From: Vigna angularis
Lineage: Eukaryota; Streptophyta; Magnoliopsida; Fabales; Fabaceae
Direction: 5' to 3'
Length of the DNA: 64,000 bases
NCBI RefSeq assembly: GCF_016808095.1
Contig: NC_068973.1
Span: 26,392,077-26,456,076, forward strand
Shown here piece after piece: positions 10,882 through 52,065 of this stretch; the stretch's first letter is position 1, and the number at the start of each line of letters is the position of its first letter. Under the pieces are notes generated by a model. The model was not told the DNA's origin. It did no database searches and was given only the letters and a program-made list of their open reading frames with translations. Position numbers and translations under genes: made by a program.

Positions 10882-13399
10882 TGTCAGACCTCATTAAAAA
10901 CGTACCCAAAACCCCTCTGAACGGATGCCAAGTATCAAGCAACGAAGATTTGGAAATCAGATAGTGGAATACAGGTGTCAGCAGATGAGCGGGCGTTCGT
11001 TTTAACGTGGGAAGCAAAACTGATTTTTCTGAAAAACCCATCCCACTCTCTCTACATGCACCCTTCTTCTCCAAAACTCCGATTTTTCATTTCTCCTTCT
11101 TCTCTCTAAAAACTCTCCCTTCTCTCTACCAAAACTCACCCTTTCTCTTCTCCGATCTTCATTCAGACACCGTAGAGGCACTTCCGGCGTCAAGAGTTTC
11201 AGTTTGAATCGATCAGTTTCGAGTTCTGAACTGGTAAGTTTCCTTGTCCTTAGCCGTTCGTTCTCTGGTACATGCAAATCAAGTTCTGGTTGCATGCTGT
11301 CATCTTGTCTGAGCCATTATTGGTTTTCTGTTGTTTGGTTTAGTTCGAAGAGTTGTTGAGCGTTGAGAGTAGAAGGAATTGTAGTCAGACGAACCGTACA
11401 TCTGTCTCTAGGACGTTCGTTCACGCTCAAAGGTAAGGGAAGCTTATTTAATTTAATTTGTATGTTTACTGTGCTGTATGAACGTTCACTGGTTGACTTA
11501 ATGAATATGATGCATGATGATTGATATGCTTGGATTGTATGAACGTTCGTTAGTTGACTGAATGAATATGATGCATGAGGGTTGATATGCTTGGATTGTA
11601 TAAAGTATGAAAAGTGATTAAGAGATGAATGTATAAAGTTATGAAACTATATGTTAAGAAATGAATTGGAATATAAATGATTCTGATATGAAATTTCTAT
11701 ATGAAAGAGTACTTCGTCATCGAATGGTCATCGACCGTTTGGTATTTCATAGTGATTTTGGTTAGACTTGGATTCTTTCAGTTGGGAAGAATCTTAGTTG
11801 AGGACGGTCGTTTTCTTTTCGAAATACTGTGCATGAACGATCGTCTGAGTAGTGCTTGGTCTTACACCAAGCGATCGTCTGAATGATGCTTGGTCTTACA
11901 CCAAGCGATCGTCTGAATGGTGCTTGGTCTTACACCAAGCGATCGTCTGAATGATGCTTGGTCTTACATCAAGTGATCGTTTGAATGGTGCTTGGTCTTA
12001 CACCAAGCGATCGTCTGAATGATGCTTGGTCTTACACCAAGCGATCGTCTGAGTGGTGCTTGGTCTTACACCAAGCGATCGTCTCATTCCTTTTATAATA
12101 TATCTTGATGAAATTAGCGTTCTTCCAACTTCAATAAAATTTTCCTTTACCGTGTTCGGTCATTGACTAACATTCGGTTTCTTCATGTGAATTCTTCTAA
12201 GTATTTTCTTTGAAGTGTCTGTAGTTATCGATTCCGGCCTAGAGCCTTAGTACTTGACATGGTCTTTTCGGTGTTCGGTTAGAACTCTCAAGGGTCAGTT
12301 CATCTAATTGGATCACTGATTAAGTAACGATCATTCTAAGTCAGTTCATCTAATTGGCTCAAGGGGAGCCTTAGTACTTGACATGATTATACTCGGTTTC
12401 TTTCTCAAACCAATAGTAGTCACCTTTGTCTTATTCTATTATGGAACGGGAGACTTCTCAGTCTCGTTCCAAGTGTTCGTCCTCGTTCTGAGTGAGGATT
12501 GAACGTTCGGTATCGAGTATCCGTAAGAAGCTTTGAACAAAGATGAAATTTAACTTATTGGTAATGAAAGATGAAATTGAGAAAATTGATAATGAAAGAT
12601 GAAATTGAGAATGATTATGAATGAAATATGAAGAGAATATTGGAATTTGTAAAGTATGACTGTGGTTCTTCTAATACTGGCAGTTCATCTTGATGTTTCA
12701 TGAATACTCGTCCTCACGTAGAGGAGGGTAGGTCATGTGTGGAAACGGCAGGAGGTCCGAGTCCTTAGGGGTACTTTGGACAGATAGGATTAACCTCAGG
12801 TGGCAGCTGATGAGGACATGCCAGTTACTACATCACCCGGGTGCAAGAACGCCTGTAGCTACACAGATTTCATACAGTCCGGACAGTCAGTCTAGTATTA
12901 GGCTTGGTATGAAGGAACTATGAATTATCTTGTTTGTTTGATTTTGTGAAATTTATGTTTATGCATGAATTAAATTACATAAGCTTACCCTGTGTTTTTC
13001 TTGTCTTGTCTTGTTTCGTACGTCCGTCCTTGTCATTGCAATGATCATCCACGTGGATGTGAGCAGAAGGAGACGAGCTGCTGGAAGAAGCGCTGGAAGA
13101 AGAAAATTTGGTAGAGGTAGAAGTGAAGACCGAACAATAGGACATTCGGTCAGTAGTGTAGTATAGAAAGGTGGTCGTTCGATCACCTTCCCTTTTGATT
13201 TCTTTTTGATCGTTTGGAATGAGTTTTGTAAACCGTTCGGTTAAACTTTCTTAACCTGTTTAGTTACTTTTATAACTCTTTTATGTAAGGTCGTTCGACC
13301 ATGACCGTTCGCTCTACTTTAGTGTAAGACTGAACTGAAATATTATTAAATGTAATTATTCTATTATATATTTTATTGCCGTATTTTTGGGATGTTACA
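10882..13399 (+). repeat. 5' LTR of the Tekay-like element
   Basis: It is 2518 bp, bounded by TG and CA. Compared with the 3' LTR it keeps about 196 bp (around 11178-11373) that the 3' copy lacks; short GTAGA repeats flank that segment, suggesting deletion by microhomology. It contains seven copies of a 34-bp tandem repeat (11839-12076) and many CGTTCG words. Confidence 0.9.
11839..12084 (+). repeat. 34-bp hairpin tandem repeat in Tekay 5' LTR
   Basis: There are seven units starting at 11839, 11873, 11907, 11941, 11975, 12009 and 12043, plus a partial unit. Each has the palindrome GCTTGGT...ACCAAGC around TCTTAC, next to a GATCGTCTGA word. The 3' LTR has the same seven-unit array at 40720-40965. 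Confidence 0.9.
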
Positions 13400-13403
13400 T
13401 TAG

Positions 13404-13415
13404 TGGTATGAGAGC
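13404..13415 (+). other. Primer binding site (initiator-Met type) of the Tekay element
   Basis: TGGTATGAGAGC lies 4 bp after the 5' LTR. It matches the usual plant tRNA-iMet primer site with one substitution at the seventh base. Confidence 0.75.
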
Positions 13416-15388: not shown

Positions 15389-15869
15389 GTTTTGGATGAA
15401 GGGCGTACAGTTCTTGGGGAACGTAGTTTCTGCTGAAGGCATCTCAGTAGATCCGACTAAGGTGCGAGCGGTGTTGGATTGGGAGAGTCCGCGTTCGGTC
15501 ACTAAGGTCCGAAGTTTCGTGGGGCTTGCGGGCTACTATAGGAGCTTTATTGAAGGATTTTCTAAGATAGTAGCTTCGCTAACTCAGCTGACCAGAAAAG
15601 ACCACCCGTTCGCGTGGATCGATCGTTGTGAAGCTAGTTTCCAAGAACTGAAGCTAAAGTTGACGAGCGCTCCAGTTTTGGTCATTCCTGACACGACCAA
15701 ACCATTTGAAGTCTACTGCGATGCTTCTTATCAAGGTTTGGGCTGTGTGCTTATGCAAGAGAAGAGGGCAGTCGTGTACGCTTCTCGGCAGCTGAAGATC
15801 CACGAGAAGAACTACTCGACGCGCGACTTGGAATTAGCGGCAGTCGTCTTCGCATTGAAGATTTAGAGG
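15389..15869 (+). pseudogene. Tekay RT thumb and RNase H N-terminal part
   Basis: It reads [18 protein letters not shown] (RT connection), then [16 protein letters not shown], then [16 protein letters not shown] (the first catalytic Asp region of RNase H) and [17 protein letters not shown]. An in-frame TAG at 15864-15866 stands where the family has a conserved residue, so RNase H was already broken before the Ogre element inserted at 15870. The frame resumes at 38182. Confidence 0.85.
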
Positions 15870-15979
15870 TGTCAACACTCAATTTCGTCCGGATTGAGTA
15901 AATATTTTTGTTTTTTTGTATTCTCCTCATAAAAGGAAAAATTAAAAAAAATGTATATTAAAAAATAAAAAAAAAGAGG

Positions 15980-16820
15980 ATGAAGCGTTCGTCCTCAAGT
16001 GACCGTTCGTCTTCCCACTGTTGCTGAAACCGTTCGTCCAAACAGTAACCATTCGTCCGTCCCCACTGTTGCTGCGGCCGTTCGTCCTTTTGCACTATTC
16101 GACCGTTCGGCCAGTATTCAAACTTGCGAGCGTTCGTCCTCTTTGATCAAGCGTTCGTCCTTTTGCACTATTCGACCGTTCGGCCAGTATTCAAGCTTGC
16201 GAGCGTTCGTCCTCTTTGATCAAGCGTTCGTCCTCTGCCGTTCGTCCTTCCCCAATGTTACTGTGGACGCTCGTCCAAACAGTGACCGTTCGTCTTTCCC
16301 CATTGTTGCTGTGGCCGTTCGTCCGAACAGTGATCGCTCGTCCTTTCTCACTGTTACTGAGGCCGTTCGTCCGGACAGTAACCGTTCGTCCTTCATTGCT
16401 TCAACCGTTCGTCCTATACCGTTCGGCCTTTTGTAATTTGGACGTTCGTCCTCGCTGCTCAACGTTCGGCCTCTACTTTTTGAACGTTCGTCCTTAATGT
16501 GGTTTTGTTCTCAGATGAGCGAGCGTCCAAACCGAGCGTTCGGTCTGAGTTATATTTCGAGCGTTCGTTTCGTTGTGTTTTAGTGATCGGGGAGCTCGTC
16601 CTTTGGTTTTAACGTTCGCTTTTGATTCTGTATTATTAACTGTGAACGTTCACTATTCGACCGTTCGGCCATTCATGCTTGTTTGAACGTTCGTTCTTTG
16701 CAACTATTTGCGTTCGGCCTGTATCAGATTGTTTTACCGCGTGAGCGTTTGGTTTGAGCGTTCGTTCATTTAATATGAAGGTTCTCTCGTTTTCGGCATA
16801 CTGACCGATCGTCCAAATAG
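15980..16820 (+). repeat. CGTTCG(T/G)CC-rich block in Ogre 5' LTR
   Basis: Dozens of copies of CGTTCGTCC, CGTTCGGCC or close variants occur at irregular spacing, together with GAACGTTCG. An internal duplication of about 70 bp is visible (units near 16092 and 16160). The 3' LTR carries the same block at about 33086-33925. CpG is far above that of the surrounding DNA. Confidence 0.85.
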
Positions 16821-16962
16821 TGGTGGCTGGGTTTTAAATTTGGTCTGAGCGTTACAGGGAAGATTCTTACCTTCGGCTGCCGCTTCCCGCCATTAGCCAT
16901 CTGAAGAACCACTTACTGTATGGGTCTCTGGAGATTTTAAAAGGAGATGAACCAGAGAATCT

Positions 16963-17463
16963 TTGAGCTGGCACTTGAGTCTGCCTCCCACTCACCTTCC
17001 ACTTTCCTTCAGCACCCTGGTTTCCACTCAACACCCAGACGGCAAAGCAATTGCTGGTAGTATATCCAACAGCAGCTGCGATCCTCTATCCACAGTTTGG
17101 AGAAGCACGCTGATGGCTGGAGACGGAGATAGAATCCAGCAGCACCTGACAGAAGCAGCACAACAGCAGCTCGTTGGAGGGTTGTTGTGCTTGAGAGAGA
17201 ATGGTTCCATCTGTTTGAAAGAGGGAGGCTTTCACGTTGGAGGGGTGCTGCACTTCACACTACAGCTTCGCTCAGCCAACTCCATCAACACGGTTCAGCA
17301 GAATGATGAGCACGAGATGGAAGCATGGGCAGCTGAGTTGAATATTAAAATTGAAGAGAAGCTCATGGTGTCTTCAGTTTTCACGTGGGCAGGTGGTGGA
17401 GCAGAATTTTGGTCAGCAAAAACATATGAGGGGAATGAGTGGAGCAGGAGGTCACGGCATTGA
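16963..17463 (+). other. 166-codon open frame in Ogre 5' LTR, function unknown
   Basis: The frame has mixed, non-repetitive composition, including AGDGDRIQQHLTEAAQQQ and HEMEAWAAELNIKIEEKL. The only difference I see in the 3' LTR copy (34069-34569) is a synonymous CTG/CTA change, so the encoded sequence is the same. I recognise no family. It may be chance coding or a leader ORF, and I do not call it a gene. Confidence 0.25.
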
Positions 17464-20030
17464 TACAAGAAAAGCTGAAAGCACATGATGATGATGAGTG
17501 GAACGCTCAGAGAATGGAAGTGCATGTTGGTAGCACATTTACAGCGCACATGGAGAAACACTTTTAGGAAGAAGATGCTCTGTGAAGTGATAAAGAATTA
17601 TGAAGGAGATTTTCCCTGATTTAAAAATGGCAAGGGTTCTGGGCTTGGTCTCCCACGAGCTCCCACATGATGCATCTGGAACGGCTGCCCTGGCAACTCT
17701 GTAATATCAGACTCCACTATCTCCACCTCCCACTGTCGCTGCCCACCACTAACAGTCTGACAAGCCACTCACAGTATGGGTTTCTACAGAAGAAGAGAAT
17801 GGTCAGGAGCACTCACATTTTTGGGTTATCATCCATGAGCTGGCATGTCAGATTTCAGGGGACACCACTTGCTATTGTCCTCCACCAGGCAACCCTTCAT
17901 GGGAGAGACTTTCTCTGCTCATCGGGGGGATTAACTTTGGTTCCCACTCACCTTGGTCCAAAAAGCTCCAGTATCCATACCTCAACATTGACCCGTTACC
18001 AGGGAACCACCGGGATCACACAAAACCTGCAAGAGATACAGGAGGCAACCCCACCCCTCTCACTACTCACCGGTATTCACTGGAAACCATCAGAGACCAC
18101 CATTCAACCCAATCTCATCGTCCATACACCATCTCGAATACCCGAAAACCCACTTCGCCTTCACCTCACCACCGCAAGCCACCGTGAAGCTTCCATCAAA
18201 CACCACTACGTTAAAACTCTGCATGCAGTAGTCTCCATCACAGCCTCATCCACCGCCACACAAACTCACCATTTCCTCCTCTTCATTTTTTTTTATTATC
18301 ACCAACACCCACCACCAGCCCTCCATTTTCATCCTCACTTCCAGCAACTATCCTCACCCAGTCATCACCTTCATCCCCAACACCTGGAAACTCTCTTCCA
18401 CCGTAGCCACACCAATCCCAAACTTTGACTCCTCTCGCCCGTAACCACTTCACCTCCTCTTCATTTTTTTTATTATCACCAACACCCACCACCAGCCCTC
18501 CATTTTCGCCTTCACTTCCATATTCATATCCTCACGGCCCACATCACCACTTTCAACATCTTAACTTCACGGGTTTCGTTTCCATATTTAATCCTTGTCA
18601 TCAAACACCTCTGGCCTTCATCTCCACCCAGACTCACTGCTATACTTCCCTTTTATTTTTCATCCCTACCCTTCGGCCATCACCCTCACCTCCAATACCC
18701 ATCATCCTCATCCCTCTTCATTCTCTGTCAATACCGAAGGGCCCCAAGAAACAACTCACGGCCTAATCTCCGAACGACCAACATCACCACCAGCCACCGT
18801 GCGTGTCACCAACATCCCTATAGCGCCTCCACTGTCAAACAACAGAGACTCCAACTTTTGTTTCCCTCCCTCGCAAGCCACCATCTCCGGCACCTCATCC
18901 CCATCCTCACGACAATCACTAACTCCATTGCTTCCAACCCATACTTGACATTCACTCACTACCTCCACTACATTTCCCGATACCATCTCCAGCCTCATCA
19001 TCTTCATTTTTACTTCCCCATCATTTTCCAACCTCTGCATATTCATCTCGGGAACACCCCTCATTACCCCTCACCTCCAGCCCATCATCTTTATCTCACT
19101 CTTCATTCATCTCCAACACTGCTACGGACCAGGGACTGAACCTTCAAGTTTCCATTCATCCCCCATCACCAACACGCCCACGGCTACCGGCAAGAGCTGG
19201 GGAGAAGCACCTTATCAAAAAAAAAAAGGGAAAGCCAGCCACGAGGGAAGCCATCTGACGCACGGGATTAGCAAGGAGTGAACCAAGCTTCAAGAGGTAA
19301 GTAATGAATCCCATTCTATGTTTTACTGAGTTTGGTTAATTGACCTTGAACATGCCTTCGTTACGTTGTTGTTAAGTTTGCATGTGTTAAATTTACGTGT
19401 GTAAGTTTGCATGTGGTGCTGTTAGATAGATGCATAGCGTTGTGAATATTCGTACATGGCTGTTGTTACCAAACAATCATCACACCCAACCATCTTGGAC
19501 ATCCACGGCCACTGCTAACACACACGGCCAGACTCCCATATTCAGCCACTCCAACACCCATCATCTCTACCCCGTTTTTCTTCTCCATCATTTTCAACAC
19601 CCAAATCTTCAACTATATTCACTTCAGCCATCACTCTTACACCACCACGGCACCACCAAAAACCCATCTTCGAGTCATAGCCATTATTATCTTTCCATCA
19701 CCATTGCCTCTGTCAGCCACCAGCTATCACCACCAGCCATTGTGAGTGCCACCAACATCCCATTCGAACTCTCATTTTCGTTCCCTCCTCTGTGAATGCG
19801 AGCTCGTGAAACTCCCTATCACCATCTTTCCTCCCAGCCAATATCGTCACCTTCACCGTTACCTCTCACCAACGACACAACCTTATTTCCATCTTCAACC
19901 TCTCACCATTACCCCTTTGATTTATTTGTATATAGTAAGCTTATTTGTATTGTTTTGTATAAAAATTATAAAAATCGTAAATAATAAAAAATATATATAA
20001 AACGTTAAAAAACATTTAATGTAATAAATC

Positions 20031-20430
20031 GGTATGAGTACTCGTGCGATCGTACGCATCAGCCTAGTACTTATTGCCCAAATATAAGATAAATAAAAGC
20101 CGTGTGAGTGCTCGTGCGATCGTACGCATCAGCCTAGTACTCATTACGCAAAACAATAAATAAAAAGCCGTGTGAGTGCTCGTGCGATCGTACGCATCAG
20201 CCTAGTACTCATTACGCAAAACAATAAAAAGAGAAAGCCGTGTGAGTGCTCGTGCGATCGTACGCATCAGCCTAGTACTCATTACGCAAAACAATAAAAA
20301 GAGAAAGCCGTGTGAGTGCTCGTGCGATCGTACGCATCGGCCTAGTACTCATCACGCAAAACAATAAAAAGAGAAAGCCGTGTGAGTGCTCGTGCGATCG
20401 TACGCATCAGCCTAGTACTCATTACGCAAA
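20031..20430 (+). repeat. ~68-bp tandem repeat array in Ogre 5' LTR
   Basis: There are six units starting near 20031, 20101, 20166, 20236, 20306 and 20376. Each holds GTGCTCGTGCGATCGTACGC and CAGCCTAGTACTCATTACGC separated by short A-rich spacers. GCGATCGTACGC is nearly palindromic. The 3' LTR has the same array at 37133-37532. Confidence 0.88.
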
Positions 20431-21076
20431 AAATATAAATATTACAACAAAAATACCAAAAAAAAATATATAAAAGTCTTCAAAAACCAAAAACGTCTAC
20501 TTTTCAAAACAACAAACAATATCGCCTTGCCAGAACTACGTGATCCTTGATTCTCCATCAAAAGTGGAGATACGTAGGAGCAAGGCCAGTCCTTGTCAGG
20601 CTCATTCTCCCAAAAATCCAAATCATTTTCCAAACAAATTCTCAAACAATTTTCAAACAAATTTCCAAAGCAGTTTTCAAATGAACTACGGAACCCTGAT
20701 TTCTCATTCTGCATGAGAATACGTAGGAGCAAGGTCAATCCTTGTCGGGCCCCAAAAAGCTAAAAAATATTGTTTGTTTCTTTAGAGTTTTATTTCAAGG
20801 GAATGTTAAACACTTTGAAAACCACATCTACATTCGCGCATTTAGTTAAAGGTACTGCCTTAGGGCAGGCGTTGTAGGGTGCTAATACCTTCCCTACACG
20901 TAACCGACTCCCGAACCAAGAATCTGGTTCAATTTGACCATGCCTTATCATTTTATGGTTTTTTCCGTAGTTTTCCAGAATAAACTATGGTGGCGACTCC
21001 AAAATCTCTTTTCAAAACCTTTTTATCTTTCTTTTTTATTGGATCGTCGTCCCGTCGCGATTCCGGTTGCGACAGA

Positions 21077-21094
21077 TGGCGACTCCGCTGGGGA
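21077..21094 (+). other. Primer binding site of the Ogre-like element
   Basis: TGGCGACTCCGCTGGGGA begins two bases after the 5' LTR. It is the type of site reported for Ogre elements, which use a tRNA-Arg primer. The tRNA assignment is from family knowledge. Confidence 0.75.
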
Positions 21095-21910
21095 ATAACA
21101 GAGAGTCAGGCCATTTAATTAGATGTGCGAATTCAATGTGGTTTTTCTTTGTGTTCTTCTTCCCTTTTTTCTTTATCCTTATTTGATATTTGTCATAATT
21201 GTATGTGTGTTTGTTTTGATTATATTGAACCCTAGGATAGAAAACATGTTATATCTGCCTGGGAATTTTCTGGTTGTTTTGCAGGTGAGGGTTTGGGGTG
21301 TATAATTACATTCTCCCTTCACACACACACAATATGCATATCATGAGTGAGGCCCTATACCCGGGTCTGAGCGCAACTTAGAAATAGAGGGGTTGTGTAG
21401 CGGTGTCACTCTGGGATGTACTTCCTGTTTGGCTATCGTGAGAACCCCAGCCAGAGTCTGTTCTTTTCATTTGTGTCTCCACACCTAGTTGATTACTCTG
21501 ACTGTTGTGGAGAAACAGTGAAAAGAGCCATAGCTCTGGTGGCCTGATTTAAGCATTAGGAAGCTATCCTTGTGAGTGCATATATTTGGCCTTAGAACTT
21601 CAGTCATCCAACCTTTGATAAGGCACAAAAGGGAGAAATGTGTATTCCTGTAACCCTCATGTTCGCTTAATAAAAATCACGCACCTTGTACATACCTCTC
21701 TATCCGTTGTTTTTCTTTTTACTTTTTCCTTCTTTCTTAGCTCATGTTTTTTTATAGTCTTGTCACGTTTTACGGATTCTAGTCAAAATTATAAAGTTGT
21801 GATTAAGGCCTTAAGCTAAAAAGGGGAATTAACATGGAATTTTGAGTCAAGAGGTATTCGAGTTCATACATTTTGACGAAAAGATGCACGTCGAGTAAAG
21901 GAGGATAATA
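21095..21910 (+). other. Ogre 5' untranslated leader
   Basis: No long frame with coding character is seen. The stretch lies between primer site and ORF1 and contains T-rich runs and short unique sequence, as expected for the leader of the genomic RNA. Confidence 0.5.
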
Positions 21911-22900
21911 TTGGTGGGGTATAAGAATTTGTTGAGTCTGTTAGAGGTGGAGGTCCAAACATCAGCAATTACTACTTTAGCCCAATACTATGATCCACCA
22001 CTAAAGTGCTTCACTTTCCAAGATTTCCAACTAGTACCACCGGTGGAAGAATTCGAGCAAGTCTTAAATATGGAAAAGACTCCATACAACTACCTTGAGC
22101 AGTATATCCTTGTCTTGCAGTTAGCGAGGATCAGGAAAGTACACCCAATGAAGTTGGAAAGCGAGTTCACAATCAAGGGCAAAGTGAGGGGCCTTCCTCA
22201 AAGATACTTATAGGAATACCTACGTCGTTTGGCTTAAGAGGAAATTTGGGAAATGTTTACAGATGTATTAGCCTTTCTCCTCTATGGTGTCATGCTTTCT
22301 CCTAAAATGTTAAGAACCTCGTCAATTATGCCGCTATGAATGCATTTGTGGGAGACAAAGAGCGCTGTGAGAATCTAGTCAGTGCCATCCTGGCTGAAGT
22401 TTATGGGACCCTTAATCGTTGTTACGAACTTAAAAGGGGAAAGATGTTATGTTGTCTACCAGTGTTTTATTTGTGGTTCATTTCCCGTGAGACTAGAGAC
22501 GTGCCTAAAATTCCCTATACCCCATGGACGAATTATTGTGGTATATAATCGATTACAAGGACATTGTAAACGATTACCCGAGAGAAAGTTGGATTTTGTA
22601 CAAAAAGTTCATCACAGGTACTCAGTCAGGTGAACATGGGTCACCATTGGAAAAAGAAGTGACTTTTAGGCACTTTTGCACTTGTCTTGGGCTGTTCCTT
22701 GTGAACCACATGTGAAAAGAGTAAATGAATGGGCGCAACTTTGTGCAAGTTTAAATGAAGAACAAGTTAAATGGTGTGTCCCTTGGCAGCATAGATCGCA
22801 TATCACATATCATTGCAGGAGGTATCCTAATGTACCCATCATGGGTATTAGGTGTTGTATTAATTGCAATCCTATGTTAGCGCAAAAAATAATTTGAGTA
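21911..22900 (+). pseudogene. Degenerate Ogre ORF1
   Basis: Overlapping frames at 21911-22213, 22382-22633, 22524-22715 and 22676-22897 together give the protein encoded upstream of gag in Ogre elements. Visible pieces are KNLLSLLEVEV, AQYYDPPLKCFTFQDFQLVP and PRESWILYKKFITG, with CINCNPMLAQ near the end. Stops and frameshifts near 22214, 22550 and 22715 break it. Its function is not established even in intact elements. The contrast with the open gag downstream suggests ORF1 is not needed in cis for movement. Confidence 0.7.
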
Positions 22901-25961: not shown

Positions 25962-26201
25962 TCAGCGAAAAAATTCCCGAGCTGGTTGCGGTGGTCTGAG
26001 GGAGAGCTCCGTCGAGGGAGCTCTGGTCCGGAATGTGAGAAGCATGGGTGGAGCGATTTGTCGTCCGTCCCTGTCGTCGTCAATGATGATCGGAACGGGG
26101 AACAAGTTCAGCAGCCTCGGCGCCCTCATGATCACCCAGTCGTATTCTTTCCAAAAAAACAGTAAAACAAAAAATTTGTCAATAATAAGATGAAGAAGGA
26201 A

Positions 26202-26233
<32 letters not shown>

Positions 26234-26531
26234 GATGGAGGTGATCAGGGTGCTTACCGTACATGTATAGCGGCAGTTGTGAAAACTGAGTGCCAGTAGG
26301 GTCTATCTCCGCTTGCCAGCGCCTGACCCGATTGCCGTGGTTGTTAAACCAGCAGTGCACATTGTATTCAGTGGCATCTGCGAAAGCCCTTAGTCGAGAT
26401 GCAATCTCGACGACTTGGGCTCTACTGGGATGTGTGACCCCGTAATTATAGATATGGGTCATCATTTTGACCTGATCTTCAGTAGGTCTCCACCGCTGAC
26501 TGGTGTACCTCTCCATCTCCATCTCGTTCAT
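25962..26531 (-). CDS. Antisense WUSCHEL-type (WOX) homeodomain protein inside the Ogre element (152 aa)
   Basis: Read on the minus strand: exon 26531-26258, intron 26257-26147 (GTAAGC...GGAAAG, T-rich before the acceptor), exon 26146-25962. The joined frame is open and encodes 152 residues. Residues 11-73 are a homeodomain of WOX type: QRWRPTEDQV at the start, GVTHPSRAQV between helices, and recognition helix NVHCWFNNHGNRVRR with the invariant Trp61, Phe62 and Asn64. The 50-residue spacing from RW to WF is exactly that of WOX proteins. HGNR replaces the family's usual basic residues just after the Asn, so DNA specificity may differ. Exon 2 has LNLFPVP, which recalls the WUS-box, and ELSLRPP, which recalls an EAR repressor motif; both are weak matches. 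Three early ATGs (residues 1, 4, 6) all precede the domain. Nuclear DNA binding is inferred. Confidence 0.72.
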
Positions 26532-26540
26532 CTTTCCTCT

Positions 26541-27541
26541 CTAAGTTTTCAAAAAAAAAAATATAAAAATAAAAAGAACAAAAACATAACGAAAGCATAA
26601 AACAACAAAAAAAAAAGTATTTTCAAATGTTTTCTTTTTCGTTTTTATTTCCTTTTAGTTTATTTTGTCCGGTCAGTCTTTGTTATTTCAGGTTCTGGTC
26701 TCGGATTTGTTTCACGGTCCTTGCAAGAGGGTCCTAAACGGATCTATGTCCTTTTGTCCTCGTCCTTTTGTCCTTGTCCATTTGGTCCATGTCCGGTTTA
26801 TACAAATCATTTATCTTTTTAAATTTTCTGATTTTATGGGGTACGTGGCGTTGTTCTACCCGATTGTCTCTGCCATACCTTCAATCGAAGGGAGATTAAC
26901 GTCTGGTTTCCAGCCTATATACCCCTTAAGTTAAGACAGTTGTGTTTTTAAGTGTTTTAAGTTTTTAAAATTAAAAAAAAAAAAGAGAAAAGAGAAAAGA
27001 AGACTCAGAAAGAAAGGCAGAGAAAGGCGAGAAAGAAATAAAAGCAGACAAAGCGGAAAGCAGAAGAAAATAGAAGAGCTTGCAGAAAAGAAAGCAGAAA
27101 AGAAAAGCATAAAGGGGAGAGGGGAAGTAAAGCAAAAATGGAAAGCAAAAGCATAAAAGGAAAAGCAGAAGCAGAAGGCTAGAGAGTAAAGAATAAACCG
27201 GAAAGCATAAGAGAAAAGAAAAATGAATAAAAACAGAGAAGGAAAGATCGAAAGAACAGAAAAGCAGAGAAGGAGGGATGGAAGGAAGAAAAACAAAAAG
27301 GAAAAACTTAACGGAAAGAAAGAAGATCGAAGAGCTCAGAAGACTTACCTGGAAGTGAAAGGGCTTACAGAAGCTCGTCGCAGCACAGGGACGCCTCCGA
27401 AAGCACACGGGGGCAGAGGCTCCTCTCAGAAATCCAGACGCTCAAGGAGAGAAGAAGAGAGAGGAAGAGAGGAAGGGAGAAGGATAGAGAGAGAGCGAAA
27501 TCAGAAAATGTCGCCCAACGCGGAGGAACTCTCGACTTATA
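26541..27541 (-). promoter_or_regulatory. Putative antisense promoter, CT-rich 5' UTR and 5'-UTR intron of the WOX-like gene
   Basis: On the minus strand, TATAA at 27541-27537 is followed by a CT-rich leader (about 27510-27425, with CTCTCTCTCTATCC-type runs). Then comes CCAG/GTAAGTCT, a near-perfect plant splice donor with exon end at 27349. A matching acceptor AACTTAG/AGAGG ends at 26541, nine bases before the ATG at 26531. This predicts an 808-nt 5'-UTR intron that is pyrimidine-rich throughout, so the plus strand is a polypurine stretch from about 26970 to 27520. The arrangement is that of a typical plant gene leader. Transcription is not shown by sequence alone. Confidence 0.5.
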
Positions 27542-30500: not shown

Positions 30501-31687
30501 AACAGGGGCAGACACTTTGGGGCTTTGTATGATTTTGAGTCCATCTTATCATTCATATACCCAAAATGGGGGGCAACTTCTTGTGGAACCTCGCTTAATT
30601 GACTCATACCCAAAACCAAGGCAACTTTGTGACTTTCAAATGTTTCGACCCATTCAGAGTATTGAGCAACTTTGTTAAATCTCAAAAATTTTCATCTGAA
30701 CATTCAAAGCTCATACAAAGACTGGGGCATCTCTTGTTGGGCCTTGCATGATTTTGGTTCGCCCCGAACTTCAAAGATCTAAAAACCACCAAAATTGGGG
30801 CAATTTGCAAATCCCACATGATATTCTCACTCCTTGATTCCTGACTTATTCCCTCTCAATTCACAGATACATTTGTCCATACCAATACTTTTACCATGTT
30901 CCAGAACAGCTTCTGGGTATCTACTACCTCACATTGGCCTTTGTAGCCATTTTAAGGAGTAAGAGACTCAAGTAGTCAACCCGGTACTCTCCAAATCCTT
31001 CCAATCATCCTCCACATATTTTTCCAACCCCTGATATCAAGCATGTACACACTAGTATCTCGTCAAGAAATGCGTAGCACACAAGCTCTATTTTGAACAG
31101 TTGACTTTAGAATTGGACGTCCATTGAAAGGAAATTGGAAGTCTATATCGTCGTAAGTTGGATGATTTCAAAGGAAACAAATTGACTCTCAAAAAAAAAA
31201 AATGTCATAAGTTCATAATCTTCCGATACATCATGTACATATTTTCATAACTTTGATTTTGCCTCCATGTATTCATCAAATTTTCTTCTTCAAAAAAAGA
31301 CAAAAAAATATGCATCAAAGTTTTCCTCTCCAATTTCAAATATTCAACAAATTTCCTTCCTTCAAAAAAGACAAAAAAATCAACATGCATCAAAGCTTTC
31401 TCCTTCAATTTCAAAATTACATGTTTTCACCAAATCTTCTTCCTTCAAAAACACAAAAAAATCAACCTTCATCAAACTTTTCTTCTCCAAATTTCAAAAT
31501 TTTCATCAACCAAGTTTCTCTTGCATATCAAGATTCCATATACTTGTACAAAAATGCAACACCTTGTTTCTTAATTTCAAAATTTTCAAAAAAAAAAAAT
31601 CAAAAATCAAAAAAAATTTCTCAAAATTTCAACCAATTCCAAATTTCAAATTCAAAGCAATCAAACATTTTTCTCTCTGCCATTTTT
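27550..31687 (+). other. Long non-coding 3' region of the Ogre element
   Basis: It is A- and T-homopolymer-rich with no protein family in any frame. It holds two sets of imperfect duplications: units with GACCCGCAAGGCCCAG and AAAGCTCAGTTTCCATACTG at about 28640-29110, and a ~290-bp duplication with GGGGCAACTTTGTG and TTCAAAG words (about 30318-30470 and 30606-30755). A third group of short duplicated stretches with TCCTTCAAAAA and CATCAAA lies at 31265-31480. Confidence 0.6.
28640..29110 (+). repeat. Imperfect tandem repeats in Ogre 3' region
   Basis: Sentence-like repeated words (TTTCCATACTGACCCGCAAG, GGCCCAGTTTCC, GGCTTGCAAAGC) recur at about 160-180 bp and shorter intervals. One clear pair is 28805-28863 and 28967-29020. 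Confidence 0.7.
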
Positions 31688-32420
31688 ATCTCGGCCATCT
31701 GCTAGATAATGGTCGAGCGCACTTTTCTCTTGTTTTATCTCGGCCATCTGCTAGATAATGGTCGAGCGCACTTTTCTTTTGTTTTATCTCGGCCATCTGC
31801 TAGATAATGGTCGAGCGCATTTTTCTCTTGTTTTTATCTCGGCCATCTGCTAGATAATGGTCGAGCGCACTTTTCTCTTGTTTTTATCTCGGCCATCTGC
31901 TAGATAATGGTCGAGCGCACTTTTCTCTTGTTTTTATCTCGGTCATCTGCTAGATAATGGTCGAGCGCACTTTTCTCTTGTTTTTATCTCGGCCATCTGC
32001 TAGATAATGGTCGAGCGCTTTTTTCTCTTGTTTTTATCTCGGCCATCTGCAAGATAATGGTCGGACGCACTTTTCAAATTTTGTTTTATCTCGGCCATCT
32101 GCAAGATAATGGTCGGACACCTTTTCAGTTTTGTTTTATCTCGGCCATCTGCTAGATAATGGTCGAAAGCACCTTTTGTTCTGTTTTTTATCTCGGCCAT
32201 CTGCTAGATAATGGTCGAAAGCACTTTTCTCTTTTTTATCTCGGCCATCTGCAAGATAATGGTCGAAAGCACCTTTTTGTTTTGTTTTATCTCGGCCATC
32301 TGCTAGATAATGGTCGAAAGCACTTTTGAATTCTGGTGTCTCGGCCCTCTGTAAGACAATGGTCGAGCCCATTTTTTTACTTTTTTCAAACGACCCTCTG
32401 CATGGCAATGGTCGAACCCA
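31688..32420 (+). repeat. ~50-bp tandem array in Ogre 3' UTR
   Basis: About thirteen good units plus two degenerate ones start near 31688, 31737, 31787, 31838, 31888, 31938, 31988, 32038, 32087, 32137, 32189, 32237 and 32289. Each holds CTCGGCCAT and ATGGTCGAG around CTGCTAGATA, an almost perfect hairpin, followed by a T-rich spacer. Hypervariable tandem repeats just before the 3' LTR are a known feature of Ogre and related elements and a known source of satellite DNA. Confidence 0.9.
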
Positions 32421-32582: not shown

Positions 32583-32975
32583 ATTGAAATCCGAACGAAA
32601 TTAATATTTCTATCTTTACTTATCTTTTACTTTGATAATATGAAAACATTGTTTATCATATGATCTAGTAAAATCTAAGTAAAGAGGGGCATCACTCAAT
32701 TTCGTCCGGATTGATTAATAAATTTTACTTTCATCAAAAAATAAAAAAAATATATATTTCCTCGTTCACTGCATCTGTAGCATTGGTGGACCTTCCACGG
32801 GGTTGTCACACTTCAATTCTCAGTTTTGTTTGTTTGTTTCATTCTCTGTTTGTTTCTTGTTTATCTTAAAATCCAGACGAAATTAGTATTTCTATCTTTA
32901 CTTATCTTTTACTCTGATAATATGAAAACATTGTTTATCATATGATCTAGTAAAATCTAAGTAAAGAGGGGCAGC
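32583..32975 (+). repeat. Duplicated polypurine tract and LTR edge
   Basis: About 120 bp ending in AAGTAAAGAGGGGCA occurs twice: 32583-32694 and 32868-32973. After the first copy comes a short LTR-start-like piece (CACTCAATTTCGTCCGG at about 32693), then T/A-rich DNA and a unique stretch. After the second copy comes the real 3' LTR. The first copy looks like a leftover LTR start or a duplication of the priming site. Confidence 0.75.
32960..32975 (+). other. Polypurine tract of the Ogre-like element
   Basis: AGTAAAGAGGGGCAGC immediately precedes the 3' LTR start at 32976. It is the expected second-strand priming site. Confidence 0.75.
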
Positions 32976-35900
32976 TGTCAACACTCAATTTCGTCCGGAT
33001 TGAGTAAATATTTTTGTTTTTTTGTATTCTCCTCATAAAAGGAAAAATTAAAAAAAATGTATATTAAAAAATAAAAAAAAAGAGGATGAAGCGTTCGTCC
33101 TCAAGTGACCGTTCGTCTTCCCACTGTTGCTGAAACCGTTCGTCCAAACAGTAACCATTCGTCCGTCCCCACTGTTGCTGCGGCCGTTCGTCCTTTTGCA
33201 TTATTCGACCGTTCGGCCAGTATTCAAACTTGCGAGCGTTCGTCCTCTTTGATCAAGCGTTCGTCCTTTTGCACTATTCGACCGTTCGGCCAGTATTCAA
33301 GCTTGCGAGCGTTCGTCCTCTTTGATCAAGCGTTCGTCCTCTGCCGTTCGTCCTTCCCCAATGTTACTGTGGACGCTCGTCCAAACAGTGACCGTTCGTC
33401 TTTCCCCATTGTTGCTGTGGCCGTTCGTCCGAACAGTGATCGCTCGTCCTTTCTCACTGTTACTGAGGCCGTTCGTCCGGACAGTAACCGTTCGTCCTTC
33501 ATTGCTTCAACCGTTCGTCCTATACCGTTCGGCCTTTTGTAATTTGGACGTTCGTCCTCGCTGCTCAACGTTCGGCCTCTACTTTTTGAACGTTCGTCCT
33601 TAATGTGGTTTTGTTCTCAGATGAGCGAGCGTCCAAACCGAGCGTTCGGTCTGAGTTATATTTCGAGCGTTCGTTTCGTTGTGTTTTAGTGATCGGGGAG
33701 CTCGTCCTTTGGTTTTAACGTTCGCTTTTGATTCTGTATTATTAACTGTGAACGTTCACTATTCGACCGTTCGGCCATTCATGCTTGTTTGAACGTTCGT
33801 TCTTTGCAACTATTTGCGTTCGGCCTGTATCAGATTGTTTTACCGCGTGAGCGTTTGGTTTGAGCGTTCGTTCATTTAATATGAAGGTTCTCTCGTTTTC
33901 GGCATACTGACCGATCGTCCAAATAGTGGTGGCTGGGTTTTAAATTTGGTCTGAGCGTTACAGGGAAGATTCTTACCTTCGGCTGCCGCTTCCCGCCATT
34001 AGCCATCTGAAGAACCACTTACTGTATGGGTCTCTGGAGATTTTAAAAGGAGATGAACCAGAGAATCTTTGAGCTGGCACTTGAGTCTGCCTCCCACTCA
34101 CCTTCCACTTTCCTTCAGCACCCTGGTTTCCACTCAACACCCAGACGGCAAAGCAATTGCTGGTAGTATATCCAACAGCAGCTGCGATCCTCTATCCACA
34201 GTTTGGAGAAGCACGCTGATGGCTGGAGACGGAGATAGAATCCAGCAGCACCTAACAGAAGCAGCACAACAGCAGCTCGTTGGAGGGTTGTTGTGCTTGA
34301 GAGAGAATGGTTCCATCTGTTTGAAAGAGGGAGGCTTTCACGTTGGAGGGGTGCTGCACTTCACACTACAGCTTCGCTCAGCCAACTCCATCAACACGGT
34401 TCAGCAGAATGATGAGCACGAGATGGAAGCATGGGCAGCTGAGTTGAATATTAAAATTGAAGAGAAGCTCATGGTGTCTTCAGTTTTCACGTGGGCAGGT
34501 GGTGGAGCAGAATTTTGGTCAGCAAAAACATATGAGGGGAATGAGTGGAGCAGGAGGTCACGGCATTGATACAAGAAAAGCTGAAAGCACATGATGATGA
34601 TGAGTGGAACGCTCAGAGAATGGAAGTGCATGTTGGTAGCACATTTACAGCGCACATGGAGAAACACTTTTAGGAAGAAGATGCTCTGTGAAGTGATAAA
34701 GAATTATGAAGGAGATTTTCCCTGATTTAAAAATGGCAAGGGTTCTGGGCTTGGTCTCCCACGAGCTCCCACATGATGCATCTGGAACGGCTACCCTGGC
34801 AACTCTGTAATATCAGACTCCACTATCTCCACCTCCCACTGTCGCTGCCCACCACTAACAGTCTGACAAGCCACTCACAGTATGGGTTTCTACAGAAGAA
34901 GAGAATGGTCAGGAGCACTCACATTTTTGGGTTATCATCCATGAGCTGGCATGTCAGATTTCAGGGGACACCACTTGCTATTGTCCTCCACCAGGAAGCC
35001 CTTCATGGGAGAGACTTTCTCTGCTCATCGGGGGGATTAACTTTGGTTCCCACTCACCTTGGTCCAAAAAGCTCCAGTATCCATACCTCAACATTGACCC
35101 GTTACCAGGGAACCACCGGGATCACACAAAACCTGCAAGAGATACAGGAGGCAACCCCACCCCTCTCACTACTCACCGGTATTCACTGGAAACCATCAAA
35201 GACCACCATTCAACCCAATCTCATCGTCCATACACCATCTCGAATACCCGAAAACCCACTTCGCCTTCACCTCACCACCGCAAGCCACCGTGAAGCTTCC
35301 ATCAAACACCACTACGTTAAAACTCTGCATGCAGTAGTCTCCATCACAGCCTCATCCACCGCCACACAAACTCACCATTTCCTCCTCTTCATTTTTTTTA
35401 TTATCACCAACACCCACCACCAGCCCTCCATTTTCATCCTCACTTCCAGCAACTATCCTCACCCAGTCATCACCTTCATCCCCAACACCTGGAAACTCTC
35501 TTCCACCGTAGCCACACCAATCCCAAACTTTGACTCCTCTCGCCCGTAACCACTTCACCTCCTCTTCATTTTTTTTATTATCACCAACACCCACCACCAG
35601 CCCTCCATTTTCGCCTTCACTTCCATATTCATATCCTCACGGCCCACATCACCACTTTCAACATCTTAACTTCACGGGTTTCGTTTCCATATTTAATCCT
35701 TGTCATCAAACACCTCTGGCCTTCATCTCCACCCAGACTCACTGCTATACTTCCCTTTTATTTTTCATCCCTACCCTTCGGCCATCACCCTCACCTCCAA
35801 TACCCATCATCCTCATCCCTCTTCATTCTCTGTCAATACCGAAGGGCCCCAAGAAACAACTCACGGCCTAATCTCCGAACGACCAACATCACCACCAGCC

Positions 35901-38176
35901 ACCGTGCGTGTCACCAACATCCCTATAGCGCCTCCACTGTCAAACAACAGAGACTCCAACTTTTGTTTCCCTCCCTCGCAAGCCACCATCTCCGGCACCT
36001 CATCCCCATCCTCACGACAATCACTAACTCCATTGCTTCCAACCCATACTTGACATTCACTCACTACCTCCACTACATTTCCCGATACCATCTCCAGCCT
36101 CATCATCTTCATTTTTACTTCCCCATCATTTTCCAACCTCTGCATATTCATCTCGGGAACACCCCTCATTACCCCTCACCTCCAGCCCATCATCTTTATC
36201 TCACTCTTCATTCATCTCCAACACTGCTACGGACCAGGGACTGAACCTTCAAGTTTCCATTCATCCCCCATCACCAACACGCCCACGGCTACCGGCAAGA
36301 GCTGGGGAGAAGCACCTTATCAAAAAAAAAGGGAAAGCCAGCCACGAGGGAAGCCATCTGACGCACGGGATTAGCAAGGAGTGAACCAAGCTTCAAGAGG
36401 TAAGTAATGAATCCCATTCTATGTTTTACTGAGTTTGGTTAATTGACCTTGAACATGCCTTCGTTACGTTGTTGTTAAGTTTGCATGTGTTAAATTTACG
36501 TGTGTAAGTTTGCATGTGGTGCTGTTAGATAGATGCATAGCGTTGTGAATATTCGTACATGGCTGTTGTTACCAAACAATCATCACACCCAACCATCTTG
36601 GACATCCACGGCCACTGCTAACACACACGGCCAGACTCCCATATTCAGCCACTCCAACACCCATCATCTCTACCCCGTTTTTCTTCTCCATCATTTTCAA
36701 CACCCAAATCTTCAACTATATTCACTTCATCCATCACTCTTACACCACCACGGCACCACCAAAAACCCATCTTCGAGTCATAGCCATTATTATCTTTCCA
36801 TCACCATTGCCTCTGTCAGCCACCAGCTATCACCACCAGCCATTGTGAGTTCCACCAACATCCCATTCGAACTCTCATTTTCGTTCCCTCCTCTGTGAAT
36901 GCGAGCTCGTGAAACTCCCTATCACCATCTTTCCTCCCAGCCAATATCGTCACCTTCACCGTTACCTCTCACCAACGACACAACCTTATTTCCATCTTCA
37001 ACCTCTCACCATTACCCCTTTGATTTATTTGTATATAGTAAGCTTATTTGTATTGTTTTGTATAAAAATTATAAAAATCGTAAATAATAAAAAATATATA
37101 TAAAACGTTAAAAAACATTTAATGTAATAAATCGGTATGAGTACTCGTGCGATCGTACGCATCAGCCTAGTACTTATTGCCCAAATATAAGATAAATAAA
37201 AGCCGTGTGAGTGCTCGTGCGATCGTACGCATCAGCCTAGTACTCATTACGCAAAACAATAAATAAAAAGCCGTGTGAGTGCTCGTGCGATCGTACGCAT
37301 CAGCCTAGTACTCATTACGCAAAACAATAAAAAGAGAAAGCCGTGTGAGTGCTCGTGCGATCGTACGCATCAGCCTAGTACTCATTACGCAAAACAATAA
37401 AAAGAGAAAGCCGTGTGAGTGCTCGTGCGATCGTACGCATCGGCCTAGTACTCATCACGCAAAACAATAAAAAGAGAAAGCCGTGTGAGTGCTCGTGCGA
37501 TCGTACGCATCAGCCTAGTACTCATTACGCAAAAAATATAAATATTACAACAAAAATACCAAAAAAAATATATAAAAGTCTTCAAAAACCAAAAACGTCT
37601 ACTTTTCAAAACAACAAACAATATCGCCTTGCCAGAACTACGTGATCCTTGATTCTCCATCAAAAGTGGAGATACGTAGGAGCAAGGCCAGTCCTTGTCA
37701 GGCTCATTCTCCCAAAAATCCAAATCATTTTCCAAACAAATTCTCAAACAATTTTCAAACAAATTTCCAAAGCAGTTTTCAAATGAACTACGGAACCCTG
37801 ATTTCTCATTCTGCATGAGAATACGTAGGAGCAAGGTCAATCCTTGTCGGGCCCCAAAAAGCTAAAAAATATTGTTTGTTTCTTTAGAGTTTTATTTCAA
37901 GGGAATGTTAAACACTTTGAAAACCACATCTACATTCGCGCATTTAGTTAAAGGTACTGCCTTAGGGCAGGCGTTGTAGGGTGCTAATACCTTCCCTACA
38001 CGTAACCGACTCCCGAACCAAGAATCTGGTTCAATTTGACCATGCCTTATCATTTTATGGTTTTTTCCGTAGTTTTCCAGAATAAACTATGGTGGCGACT
38101 CCAAAATCTCTTTTCAAAACCTTTTTATCTTTCTTTTTTATTGGATCGTCGTCCCGTCGCGATTCCGGTTGCGACA
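32976..38176 (+). repeat. 3' LTR of the Ogre-like element (5201 bp)
   Basis: It is almost identical to the 5' LTR and four bases shorter through homopolymer indels. Substitutions I noted lie near 33199, 34254, 34793, 34997, 34999, 35199, 36729 and 36850. It carries the same CGTTCG block, 166-codon frame (34069-34569), G-poor block and tandem array (37133-37532). Confidence 0.92.
37133..37532 (+). repeat. ~68-bp tandem repeat array in Ogre 3' LTR
   Basis: It is the six-unit counterpart of the array at 20031-20430, with the same order of variant units. Confidence 0.88.
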
Positions 38177-38181
38177 AGAGG

Positions 38182-42319: not shown

Positions 42320-42324
42320 ATTAG

Positions 42325-49795: not shown

Positions 49796-50287
49796 ACGCT
49801 GGAATACAAATCATGCAAGAACTAAACATTTTCCCAACTAAACAGTTCAATCTAAGACAAAAAAAAAAAAAGTACACTTCAAAATTAGAAATTTTTTACA
49901 AATATACTTTTTTCTTGAGAAATATTCCGACAACACCCACGGACTAAATCATGAAGAAAATTTTCTATAATTATTCGTTATAGAACTATATCCTTTTTTC
50001 CAGGTCATAATTCAGCTTCAGGGGCCTGAATTCTGAACCCGGATTTACGTTCACCATGCTCAAAACATGGTTGGATTTACTCTCATCCGAAATCAATAAA
50101 AAGAAAAACAAAAAGTAGATAAGCTGTAGCAAACAATGCATACATGATAGCCCTCTCATAGACAAGGACTGTGTTGAAACAATCAACCAAAAAGTGAACA
50201 AGAGAGGTCCAGTTGACTGGTTCCAAAGCAAAGTTCCTTCACCTCACATGCACTATCAATAAATCTGAACCAGCATTTCGTTTGTAT

Positions 50288-50295
50288 TATAAATA
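50288..50295 (+). promoter_or_regulatory. TATA box of the LRR receptor kinase gene
   Basis: TATAAATA lies 66 bp before the ATG at 50354. The leader between is C/T- and A-rich. Confidence 0.6.
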
Positions 50296-51800: not shown

Positions 51801-52064
51801 TGTTAGAAGTTTGTCTTAGAAGTCCCACATCTAAAGTGGGCAAAGACTTTCCTCCCTCATTTGCATATAAATAGAGGTGTAAGGGAAGGTGTAAGATGCA
51901 CCAAAAATTACTTGTATCCTCCTTGCTCTAAAGAGAGGGTGTTGTAATCTCTTCTATCTAGTAAATATTTTTCTTGACCTTGCCCTTGGTCTTGTGTTAG
52001 TTATAAATTTTCTCATCTTTAATTTTAGTTGTGTGTGCTTGTGTTGTATGACTGATACCCAACA
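51801..52064 (+). repeat. 5' LTR of the copia element
   Basis: A TATA box TATAAATA at 51866-51873 would drive element transcription. Readthrough translation of the kinase gene into this LTR ends at a TAG at 51872-51874. Confidence 0.95.
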
Positions 52065-52065
52065 G

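What the first reader, a model, noticed from the sequence alone, without database searches (positions are those of the whole stretch)
25962..26531. WOX-type homeobox gene carried antisense inside a recently moved Ogre element
Seen directly: a two-exon frame of 152 aa with clean GT/AG splice sites, whose residues 11-73 keep the WOX-specific homeodomain spacing (50 residues from RW to WF with no gap) and the invariant Trp, Phe and Asn of helix 3. It lies between gag and the 3' repeats, where pol should be, on the opposite strand. Known: Tat-lineage elements can carry extra ORFs, some antisense, but I do not recall one described as a WUSCHEL-type factor. Inference: a captured developmental regulator maintained by, or hitchhiking on, a non-autonomous retrotransposon. 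Because it is antisense, its introns are not spliced from the genomic RNA, which explains why they survive retrotransposition.
Basis: partly seen in the sequence, partly recalled or inferred. Interest (0 to 1): 0.93.

Follow-up and report, generated by a model that had tools for sequence, protein, structure and literature searches.

The report
WUSCHEL-like gene inside bean retrotransposons
A jumping element in a bean genome (by its matches adzuki bean) carries, on its reverse strand, a spliced gene descended from the WUSCHEL family of plant stem-cell regulators; related LTR-borne WOX genes were already reported in wild Vigna beans, and the copies examined here add that selection has preserved the protein sequence although this element has lost its own replication enzymes.

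Summary
The 152-aa two-exon frame is exactly at 25962-26531 (-) with GT/AG borders. It is a WOX homeodomain: best PDB matches WUSCHEL and STENOFOLIA; exon 2 adds WUS-box-like and EAR-like motifs. It lies in a 22.3-kb gag-only element with near-identical LTRs and TSD AGAGG. Named close relatives are all Vigna angularis. In the window's own genome 150 of 150 scored hits (of 621 candidates) match exon 1, 148 without a stop. I read 48 copies: all keep ATG, GT, AG and exon-2 frame; pN/pS is 0.17 overall, 0.23 for exon 2 in the 39 copies picked by exon 1 alone, and 0.01 in helix 3. So it is a maintained accessory gene, not a passenger. Prior report: PMC10714607 describes LTR-flanked WOX amplification, over 1000 copies, in V. 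riukiuensis, and in V. marina; the carriage is therefore not new. New here, as far as I saw: antisense spliced layout, selection on codons, fixed changes in the recognition helix, and a 98.6% conserved noncoding island. Transcription, and whether selection acts on element or host, were not testable.

The parts
15865..15869 (.). 5' target-site duplication AGAGG
15870..21074 (+). 5' LTR (TGTCAACA...GCGACA), near-identical to the 3' LTR
21077..21094 (+). primer-binding site TGGCGACTCCGCTGGGGA (tRNA-Arg type, recalled)
   Evidence: tRNA-Arg PBS typical of Ogre per PMC9289625 passage
21899..22894 (+). broken ORF1 upstream of gag: three pieces match DUF7745 (PF24924)
   Evidence: 7.2e-30, 3e-14, 1e-15; DUF7745 is listed together with a gag domain in P0210 and P0222
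23741..25207 (+). gag ORF, uninterrupted, 489 aa
25962..26146 (-). WOX-like gene, coding exon 2 with stop: WUS-box-like LLNLFP, acidic stretch, EAR-like STELSL
26147..26257 (-). intron of the WOX-like gene, GTAAGC...AG; 78-136 nt in the 48 copies
   Evidence: printed lengths are one short
26258..26531 (-). WOX-like gene, coding exon 1 with the homeodomain (residues 11-73)
26532..26540 (-). 5' end of the coding exon after a TTAG acceptor (inferred untranslated)
   Evidence: motif found at -13/-14 in 29 of 48 copies
26835..26950 (.). conserved noncoding island, mean identity to the window copy 98.1% over 44 of 47 other copies (core 26838-26925 98.6%); a predicted 36-nt 5' exon (26879-26914, - strand) lies in it
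   Evidence: exon use only from the public gene model P0047, compared by eye
27349..27541 (-). inferred antisense promoter (TATAAG 27541-27536) and first exon ending CAG|GTAAGT
   Evidence: motif counts 43 and 39 of 48 copies; not tested by RNA
31666..32416 (+). tandem repeat array, about 50-bp unit
32963..32975 (+). polypurine tract AAAGAGGGGCAGC
32976..38176 (+). 3' LTR
38177..38181 (.). 3' target-site duplication AGAGG

Best explanation
This is a WOX-derived transcription factor that became a resident accessory gene of a group of Ogre/Tat-type retrotransposons in Vigna, here in the genome whose matches name V. angularis. It is encoded antisense to gag, so its introns survive the sense RNA intermediate (inference). 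The coding pattern across copies shows that a spliced protein has been under strong purifying selection during the spread of the elements (shown at the level of sequence). Most likely mechanism (inferred): an antisense promoter about 1 kb upstream makes an mRNA; the protein enters the nucleus, reads DNA with the retained WUS triad R38/N90/R94 and, through its WUS-box-like and EAR-like motifs, recruits TOPLESS-type corepressors, acting as a repressor that favours transcription or transposition of the elements in meristematic or embryonic cells. Gene identity and selection: about 0.9. The repressor-for-the-element mechanism: about 0.3.
For: WOX homeodomain by profile, PDB sequence and predicted fold (Foldseek ranks 1-11 are all STENOFOLIA or WUSCHEL, one of them under E 0.001). 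48 of 48 copies keep ATG, GT, AG and exon-2 frame; reading through the intron would keep exon 2 open in only 11 of 48. pN/pS 0.166 (codon bootstrap 0.122-0.215), helix 3 0.009, exon 2 0.223; in the 39 copies picked by exon 1 only, exon 2 0.231 (0.154-0.330). Third codon positions of exon 1 84.9% identical to the window copy, first and second 97.2%, introns 75-84%. Protein-level pattern agrees: helix 3 0.31 and EAR-like 0.23 of neutral expectation, loop 49-55 2.75. WUS-box-like and EAR-like motifs in 38 and 37 of 58 main-family models and 8 of 9 of a second subfamily. The gene stays open in two copies whose gag is truncated or was not found (L071, L074).
Against: No RNA evidence; the upstream exons rest on motifs and one public gene model. 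Copies were picked by exon-1 protein similarity, which lowers pN/pS for exon 1; the DNA-picked control never ran. Terminal and internal branches have the same ratio (0.170 and 0.191; 0.174 and 0.194 on a noncoding tree), so element-level and host-level selection are not separated. A trans-acting protein should be as dispensable per copy as pol. TGAA sites are not enriched in the LTR (76 seen, 70.5 expected), while the unrelated outer LTR taken as control is (49 seen, 29.8 expected). Three backbone contacts of WUS are lost (K82 to Y, Y86 to C, K92 to G). AlphaFold was confident only after true WOX sequences were added (mean pLDDT 39 without; homeodomain blocks 80-95 with). In the protein-level test the strongest CpG model reached the observed 64 unchanged sites in its best of 2000 draws, though not the observed site-to-site spread. 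The second subfamily has pN/pS 0.44 and stops in 6 of 20 loci.
Confidence: 0.78

Rival explanations
1. Passenger: a WOX fragment captured once and amplified with the element, with no function.
For: Gene capture by transposons is common and often gives non-functional fragments (passages of PMC13317346); no transcription shown.
Against: pN/pS 0.17 and helix 3 near 0; splice sites kept in 48 of 48 copies with variable introns.
Confidence: 0.05
2. Host-level selection: the plant uses products of some copies, and most conservation reflects recent descent from those loci. The meeting report PMC10714607 leaves a role in coastal adaptation of V. marina and V. riukiuensis open.
For: Terminal branches are as constrained as internal ones; public annotation treats copies as genes, some named WUSCHEL-related homeobox; amplification reported in two salt-adapted species.
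Against: Constraint runs across diverged copies on contigs C1 to C11, hard to explain by a few host loci; V. angularis, the species named by the matches here, was not one of the two coastal species.
Confidence: 0.15
3. Element-level selection, but on a cis role: the antisense transcription unit (promoter, island, splicing) matters, for instance by controlling sense RNA or silencing, with the protein secondary.
For: The noncoding island is more conserved (98.6%) than the coding exons (93%) and is present in 20 of 20 second-subfamily loci; review PMC7264820 discusses dsRNA roles (passages).
Against: Selection is clearly on amino acids too: third positions vary, helix 3 does not. The island was not found in 3 of 48 main-family copies (L056, L060, L061), whose frames show no stop.
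Confidence: 0.15
4. Competitor of host WOX proteins: the protein occupies WOX sites or corepressors and derepresses meristem programmes or the element (dominant-negative).
For: Base-reading triad kept, backbone clamp changed; small protein with WUS-box-like and EAR-like motifs.
Against: No binding data; the motifs could equally give an active repressor.
Confidence: 0.2

Closest known systems
LTR-flanked WOX genes amplified in Vigna marina and V. riukiuensis (K. Naito, reported in PMC10714607; section read; the cited preprint 10.1101/2022.03.28.486085 is not held)
   Same: WOX family genes, many copies (more than 1000 in V. riukiuensis), mostly surrounded by identical LTRs with target-site duplications, in Vigna
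   Different: The report gives no orientation, splicing, selection or protein detail; sequences could not be compared, so identity of the family is likely but untested. V. angularis is not named there as amplified
WUSCHEL-related homeobox (WOX) proteins, WUS/modern clade (WUS 6ry3, STENOFOLIA 6wig)
   Same: Homeodomain spacing and fold, docking Trp, base-reading R38/N90/R94, a LxLFP WUS-box-like motif and an EAR-like motif
   Different: 33-43% identical by local alignment to the 56 WOX-type proteins listed after the Vigna copies; Q89 to N, K82 to Y, Y86 to C, K92 to G in 48 of 48 copies; own clade in a homeodomain tree; mobile
Antisense accessory ORFs of Tat/Retand elements (Grande gene23, RIRE2, Retand; TRP28 domain)
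   Same: Antisense to gag-pol, before the 3' LTR, retained in many copies, nuclear or DNA-binding role suggested (PMC11963269, PMC7264820; passages)
   Different: Domain is a WOX homeodomain; no TRP28 (PF04195) match; the gene is spliced
Orchid Ty3/gypsy elements with an acquired AlkB-type m6A demethylase (PMC9289625)
   Same: A Tat/Ogre-related element that acquired a host-derived gene and kept it through replication (passages)
   Different: An RNA-modifying enzyme rather than a developmental transcription factor
TR-GAG non-autonomous LTR retrotransposons
   Same: Two LTRs and gag as the only replication gene; such an element has been seen to transpose (PMC8704663 passages)
   Different: 22 kb long with an antisense cellular-type gene

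Membership tests
LTR-borne WOX genes of Vigna (as in PMC10714607) | WOX gene between identical LTRs with TSD, many copies | tested here: met
   LTRs and TSD shown for the window copy only
LTR-borne WOX genes of Vigna (as in PMC10714607) | Same element and gene family by sequence | not testable with these tools
   V. marina and V. riukiuensis sequences not held; preprint not held
WOX transcription factors | WOX-type homeodomain | tested here: met
WOX transcription factors | Base-reading residues R38, N90, R94 of WUS (PMC7203112 passages) | tested here: met
   R13 in 47 of 48, N64 and R68 in 48 of 48 copies
WOX transcription factors | Q89 and backbone contacts K82, Y86, K92 | tested here: not met
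   N, Y, C, G in 48 of 48 copies; the second subfamily keeps Q89 in 9 of 9 models. These are contacts seen in WUS, not a family definition I tested across WOX
WOX transcription factors | WUS box TLxLFPxx (modern clade; motif recalled) | tested here: inconclusive
   LLDLFP/LLNLFP lacks the leading Thr; L.LFP occurs in 1375 of 200000 shuffles of exon 2, L.LFP followed by ELSL-type in 0
WOX transcription factors | Placement inside the WOX tree | tested here: inconclusive
   59 unique homeodomains of 73 sequences given, 64 columns: own clade; midpoint rooted, ancient-clade WOX not deliberately included
Ogre (Tat clade) retrotransposons | RT/RH/INT phylogeny with aRH | not testable with these tools
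   no pol found in the element
Ogre (Tat clade) retrotransposons | Long LTRs, tRNA-Arg PBS, ORF1 upstream of gag | tested here: met
   5.2-kb LTRs, PBS (tRNA identity recalled), broken DUF7745 ORF1
TR-GAG | LTRs plus gag, no pol | tested here: met
   (12 internal pieces scanned)
Retand-type TRP28 antisense ORF | TRP28/Transposase_28 domain (PF04195) | tested here: not met
   only PF00046 matches

The most novel reading that the evidence does not exclude
A Vigna retrotransposon group turned a plant stem-cell regulator to its own use, the reverse of the usual exaptation: it keeps an altered WUSCHEL-type repressor under selection to reshape the state of host meristem or embryo cells, so that cells of the germ lineage permit transposition, with a highly conserved control island driving it. 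Pol could be discarded, this gene could not; this would explain bursts of more than 1000 copies in some Vigna species.
Probability: 0.2. Interest if true: 0.95.

Novelty: new member of a known kind. Interest (0 to 1): 0.76.

Why it matters
Antisense ORFs of Tat elements are widespread and unexplained, and the LTR-driven amplification of WOX genes in Vigna has been reported without a mechanism. Here the gene has a solved homologous structure with known DNA contacts and a codon record of selection, so what such genes do becomes directly testable. It also means that WOX counts from bean annotations include transposon genes: some copies are named WUSCHEL-related homeobox 2, 4 or 8-like in public records, and an expansion of this family was reported for V. 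reflexo-pilosa (PMC10357499 passage), which may have the same cause (inference).

Tried and rejected
PMC10714607 had been in the listing; reading it showed LTR-flanked WOX amplification in two Vigna species. I lowered novelty and interest for that reason. Self-binding of the element: TGAA, TGAATGAA, TTAATSS and G-box counts in the LTR are near shuffle expectation, in the internal region near or below it, and TGAA is enriched only in the control LTR. The island as a known RNA: the only Rfam match in the region (CrcZ, E 0.55) is chance and lies elsewhere; fold z -2.1 on the sense strand and -0.8 on the antisense; on the sense alignment 1 of 17 consensus pairs shows a two-sided change and the covariation term is +0.31; the antisense alignment was not folded. 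Branch test to separate element-level from host-level selection: uninformative with 48 copies. First AlphaFold job with family sequences only: unusable. pol remnants: no match in the pieces tried. First protein-level calculation had an off-by-one exon border and was redone. Intron lengths printed are one base short and are given here as 78-136; one search tallied mod 3 from the uncorrected list, so I cite only its read-through count, which was computed afresh.

Full report
What is there. The stated frame is exact: exon 1 26531-26258, a 111-nt GT-AG intron, exon 2 26146-25962 with the stop, all on the minus strand, 152 aa. Pfam gives Homeodomain at 1.7e-6 and the PDB sequence search gives WUSCHEL 3.4e-10 and STENOFOLIA 4.7e-10, with the next chain at 0.28. 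An AlphaFold model built on 49 sequences is confident over the homeodomain (10-residue means 80-95 for residues 11-80), and its 11 best Foldseek matches in the PDB are all STENOFOLIA or WUSCHEL chains, E 2.2e-4 to 1.7e-2. That alignment contained true WOX proteins; with the family alone the model failed, so the fold is supported mainly by homology.

The carrier. LTRs at 15870-21074 and 32976-38176; the alignment shows 9 substitutions and 4 gap columns, 5204 letters compared, one of the substitutions lying just outside the LTR; the 5-bp duplication is AGAGG. It sits in an older gypsy element with LTRs near 11369-13404 and 40250-42325 (92% alike). Inside: PBS, a broken ORF1 with three DUF7745 pieces, an intact 489-aa gag whose nearest database relatives are Vigna proteins, the antisense gene, tandem repeats and a polypurine tract. 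No pol domain was found in 12 internal frame pieces. The layout fits a non-autonomous Ogre/Tat element; without RT the lineage cannot be proven.

Relatives. A search of 5.8 billion proteins found 58 matches among 66 candidates; every name shown is Vigna angularis. A profile search with WUSCHEL and STENOFOLIA added returned 2716 matches, 120 listed: 55 of the same 58, nine more Vigna angularis proteins (P0059-P0067, 37-50% identical to the window protein), and 56 further proteins, whose names where given are WOX, WUSCHEL or homeobox proteins or uncharacterised proteins of other plants. P0059-P0067 keep the glutamine of helix 3 that WUS has; P0059-P0066 read LLDLFP (LLSLFP in P0063) and STELSLRL, so both short motifs probably predate the split of the two subfamilies. 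In a tree of 59 unique homeodomains the two subfamilies form one clade apart from the sampled WOX-type proteins; 64 columns and midpoint rooting give no firm source gene.

The window's own genome. G000 has 448,266,875 bases; the window lies on C4. With exon 1 as query 621 candidates were found, the best 150 scored, all 150 matched at 90-100% identity, 148 without an internal stop. I read 48 copies: the tool's best eight (the window copy among them), 31 more from that list chosen by hand across its range and including both copies with stops, and nine divergent ones from the search with P0059. All 48 have ATG, a GT donor and an AG acceptor at the same place; the exon-2 match starts in frame in all 48, ends before its last residue in 8, and a stop follows the aligned end within 0-7 codons (0 in 37); three copies carry a stop inside (L039, L040, L047). 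Intron length runs from 78 to 136 nt and reading through would keep exon 2 open in only 11 of 48, so a spliced product is what selection has seen (inference).

Selection. Pooled pN/pS is 0.166 for the whole frame (codon bootstrap 0.122-0.215), 0.132 for exon 1, 0.223 for exon 2, 0.009 for helix 3. The copies were found through exon 1, which biases exon 1 downward; exon 2 was not in that query, and in the 39 copies found that way it still gives 0.231 (0.154-0.330). Third codon positions of exon 1 are 84.9% identical to the window copy, first and second 97.2%, introns 75-84%. A protein-level test on 27 of 59 models gave the same picture: 64 unchanged sites against 32 to 48 expected, depending on the mutation model (under the strongest CpG model the best of 2000 draws also reached 64), with site-to-site spread beyond every draw in all four models, replacements concentrated in loop 49-55 and the tail, few in helix 3 and the EAR-like motif. 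Terminal and internal branches do not differ (0.170, 0.191), with inferred stops only on terminal ones. A search for copies by noncoding DNA, which would remove the remaining bias, did not complete.

How it may work. Of the WUS residues that read bases (R38, N90, R94; PMC7203112, passages) each is kept in at least 47 of 48 copies, while Q89, K82, Y86 and K92 are replaced by the same residues in all 48. I infer a DNA-binding protein with related core preference and changed affinity or flanking specificity. Exon 2 has a WUS-box-like motif and an EAR-like motif under constraint (0.135 and 0.136, wide intervals); in WUS-type proteins such motifs mediate repression through TOPLESS (recalled). Together this suggests a repressor. 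The element's LTR is not enriched for TGAA sites, while a control LTR is, so simple self-activation through that motif is not supported. Upstream, a TATAAG and a CAG|GTAAGT donor suggest a promoter and first exon near 27541-27349; related motifs occur in 43 and 39 of 48 copies, and the public model P0047 has a start that resembles translations of these upstream exons (by eye). No RNA was examined.

The island. Between the inferred first exon and the coding exon lies 26835-26950, on average 98.1% identical to the window copy over 44 of 47 others (core 98.6%), against 76.9% and 83.8% in the introns around it and 93% in the coding exons. A match was found in 45 of 48 main-family copies and 20 of 20 second-subfamily loci, there at 83-93% identity, although the proteins are only about half identical. 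It matches no Rfam family and shows no covariation on the sense strand beyond one pair in one copy; a DNA control element or a regulated small exon are both possible.

Context in other copies. Six larger stretches were read. L072 has the same gag beside the gene. L071 has LTR, ORF1 and only part of gag. L074 has LTR sequence and a piece of the ORF1 region in reversed orientation, no gag found. L073 has a different gag (8e-6). Two second-subfamily stretches (L069, L070) show no match to this gag within about 7 kb. The gene thus outlasts gag in some copies and occurs beside more than one gag type; six stretches are too few for rates.

Other species. Mean dS near 0.40 implies a family far older than its youngest insertions. 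No named protein of another Vigna species appeared or among the 120 rows, whereas the gag family is present in V. radiata at about 70% and V. unguiculata at about 56%. Yet a meeting report states that V. marina and V. riukiuensis carry many LTR-flanked WOX copies (PMC10714607, section read), so absence in the protein collection is probably an effect of annotation or of what is held, not evidence of a single-species family. V. reflexo-pilosa is also reported with an expanded WUSCHEL-related homeobox family (PMC10357499 passage).

Known or new. LTR-driven amplification of WOX genes in Vigna is known from that report, which cites a preprint I could not see. Antisense accessory ORFs with DNA-binding features are established for Retand and related elements (PMC11963269, PMC7264820, passages), and a Tat/Ogre-related element with an acquired enzyme gene is published (PMC9289625, passages). 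I saw no account of the antisense layout, splicing, codon selection, helix changes or the island: paper searches were judged by titles and abstract starts of the rows listed (one search listed 15 of 1,016, 12 of 42), apart from the papers opened, and subscription papers, preprints and supplements were not searched. I call it a new member of a known kind, with new evidence on what maintains that kind.

Noticed in passing
window 26835-26950: Noncoding island more conserved across element copies (98%) than the protein, shared by two diverged subfamilies; nature unknown.
   Followed up: partly
window 15870-21074 and 32976-38176: The LTR holds many CGTTCGTCC-type motifs: 14 exact copies on both strands against 0.0 expected in shuffles.
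   Followed up: partly
window 32584-32699 and 32866-32981: The polypurine tract and LTR start are partly duplicated (93% over 116 nt) just upstream of the true 3' LTR.
   Followed up: no
window 50198-57791: A leucine-rich-repeat receptor kinase-like gene appears split by a Ty1/copia-type element with long open frames at 52256-56302 (translations, by eye).
   Followed up: no
window 11369-42325: Older gypsy element that hosts the insertion; its LTRs are 92% alike and its frame has a TAG next to the insertion site.
   Followed up: no
P0046, P0059, P0062, P0066: Public records name some copies WUSCHEL-related homeobox 2, 4 or 8-like, so WOX family counts in this species may include transposon genes.
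   Followed up: no
L073:1747-3234 (-): A different gag-type ORF next to a main-family WOX gene, hinting at exchange of the gene between element families.
   Followed up: partly
window 62160-63782 (-): Open pol frames of another gypsy-type element near the window end (by eye).
   Followed up: no
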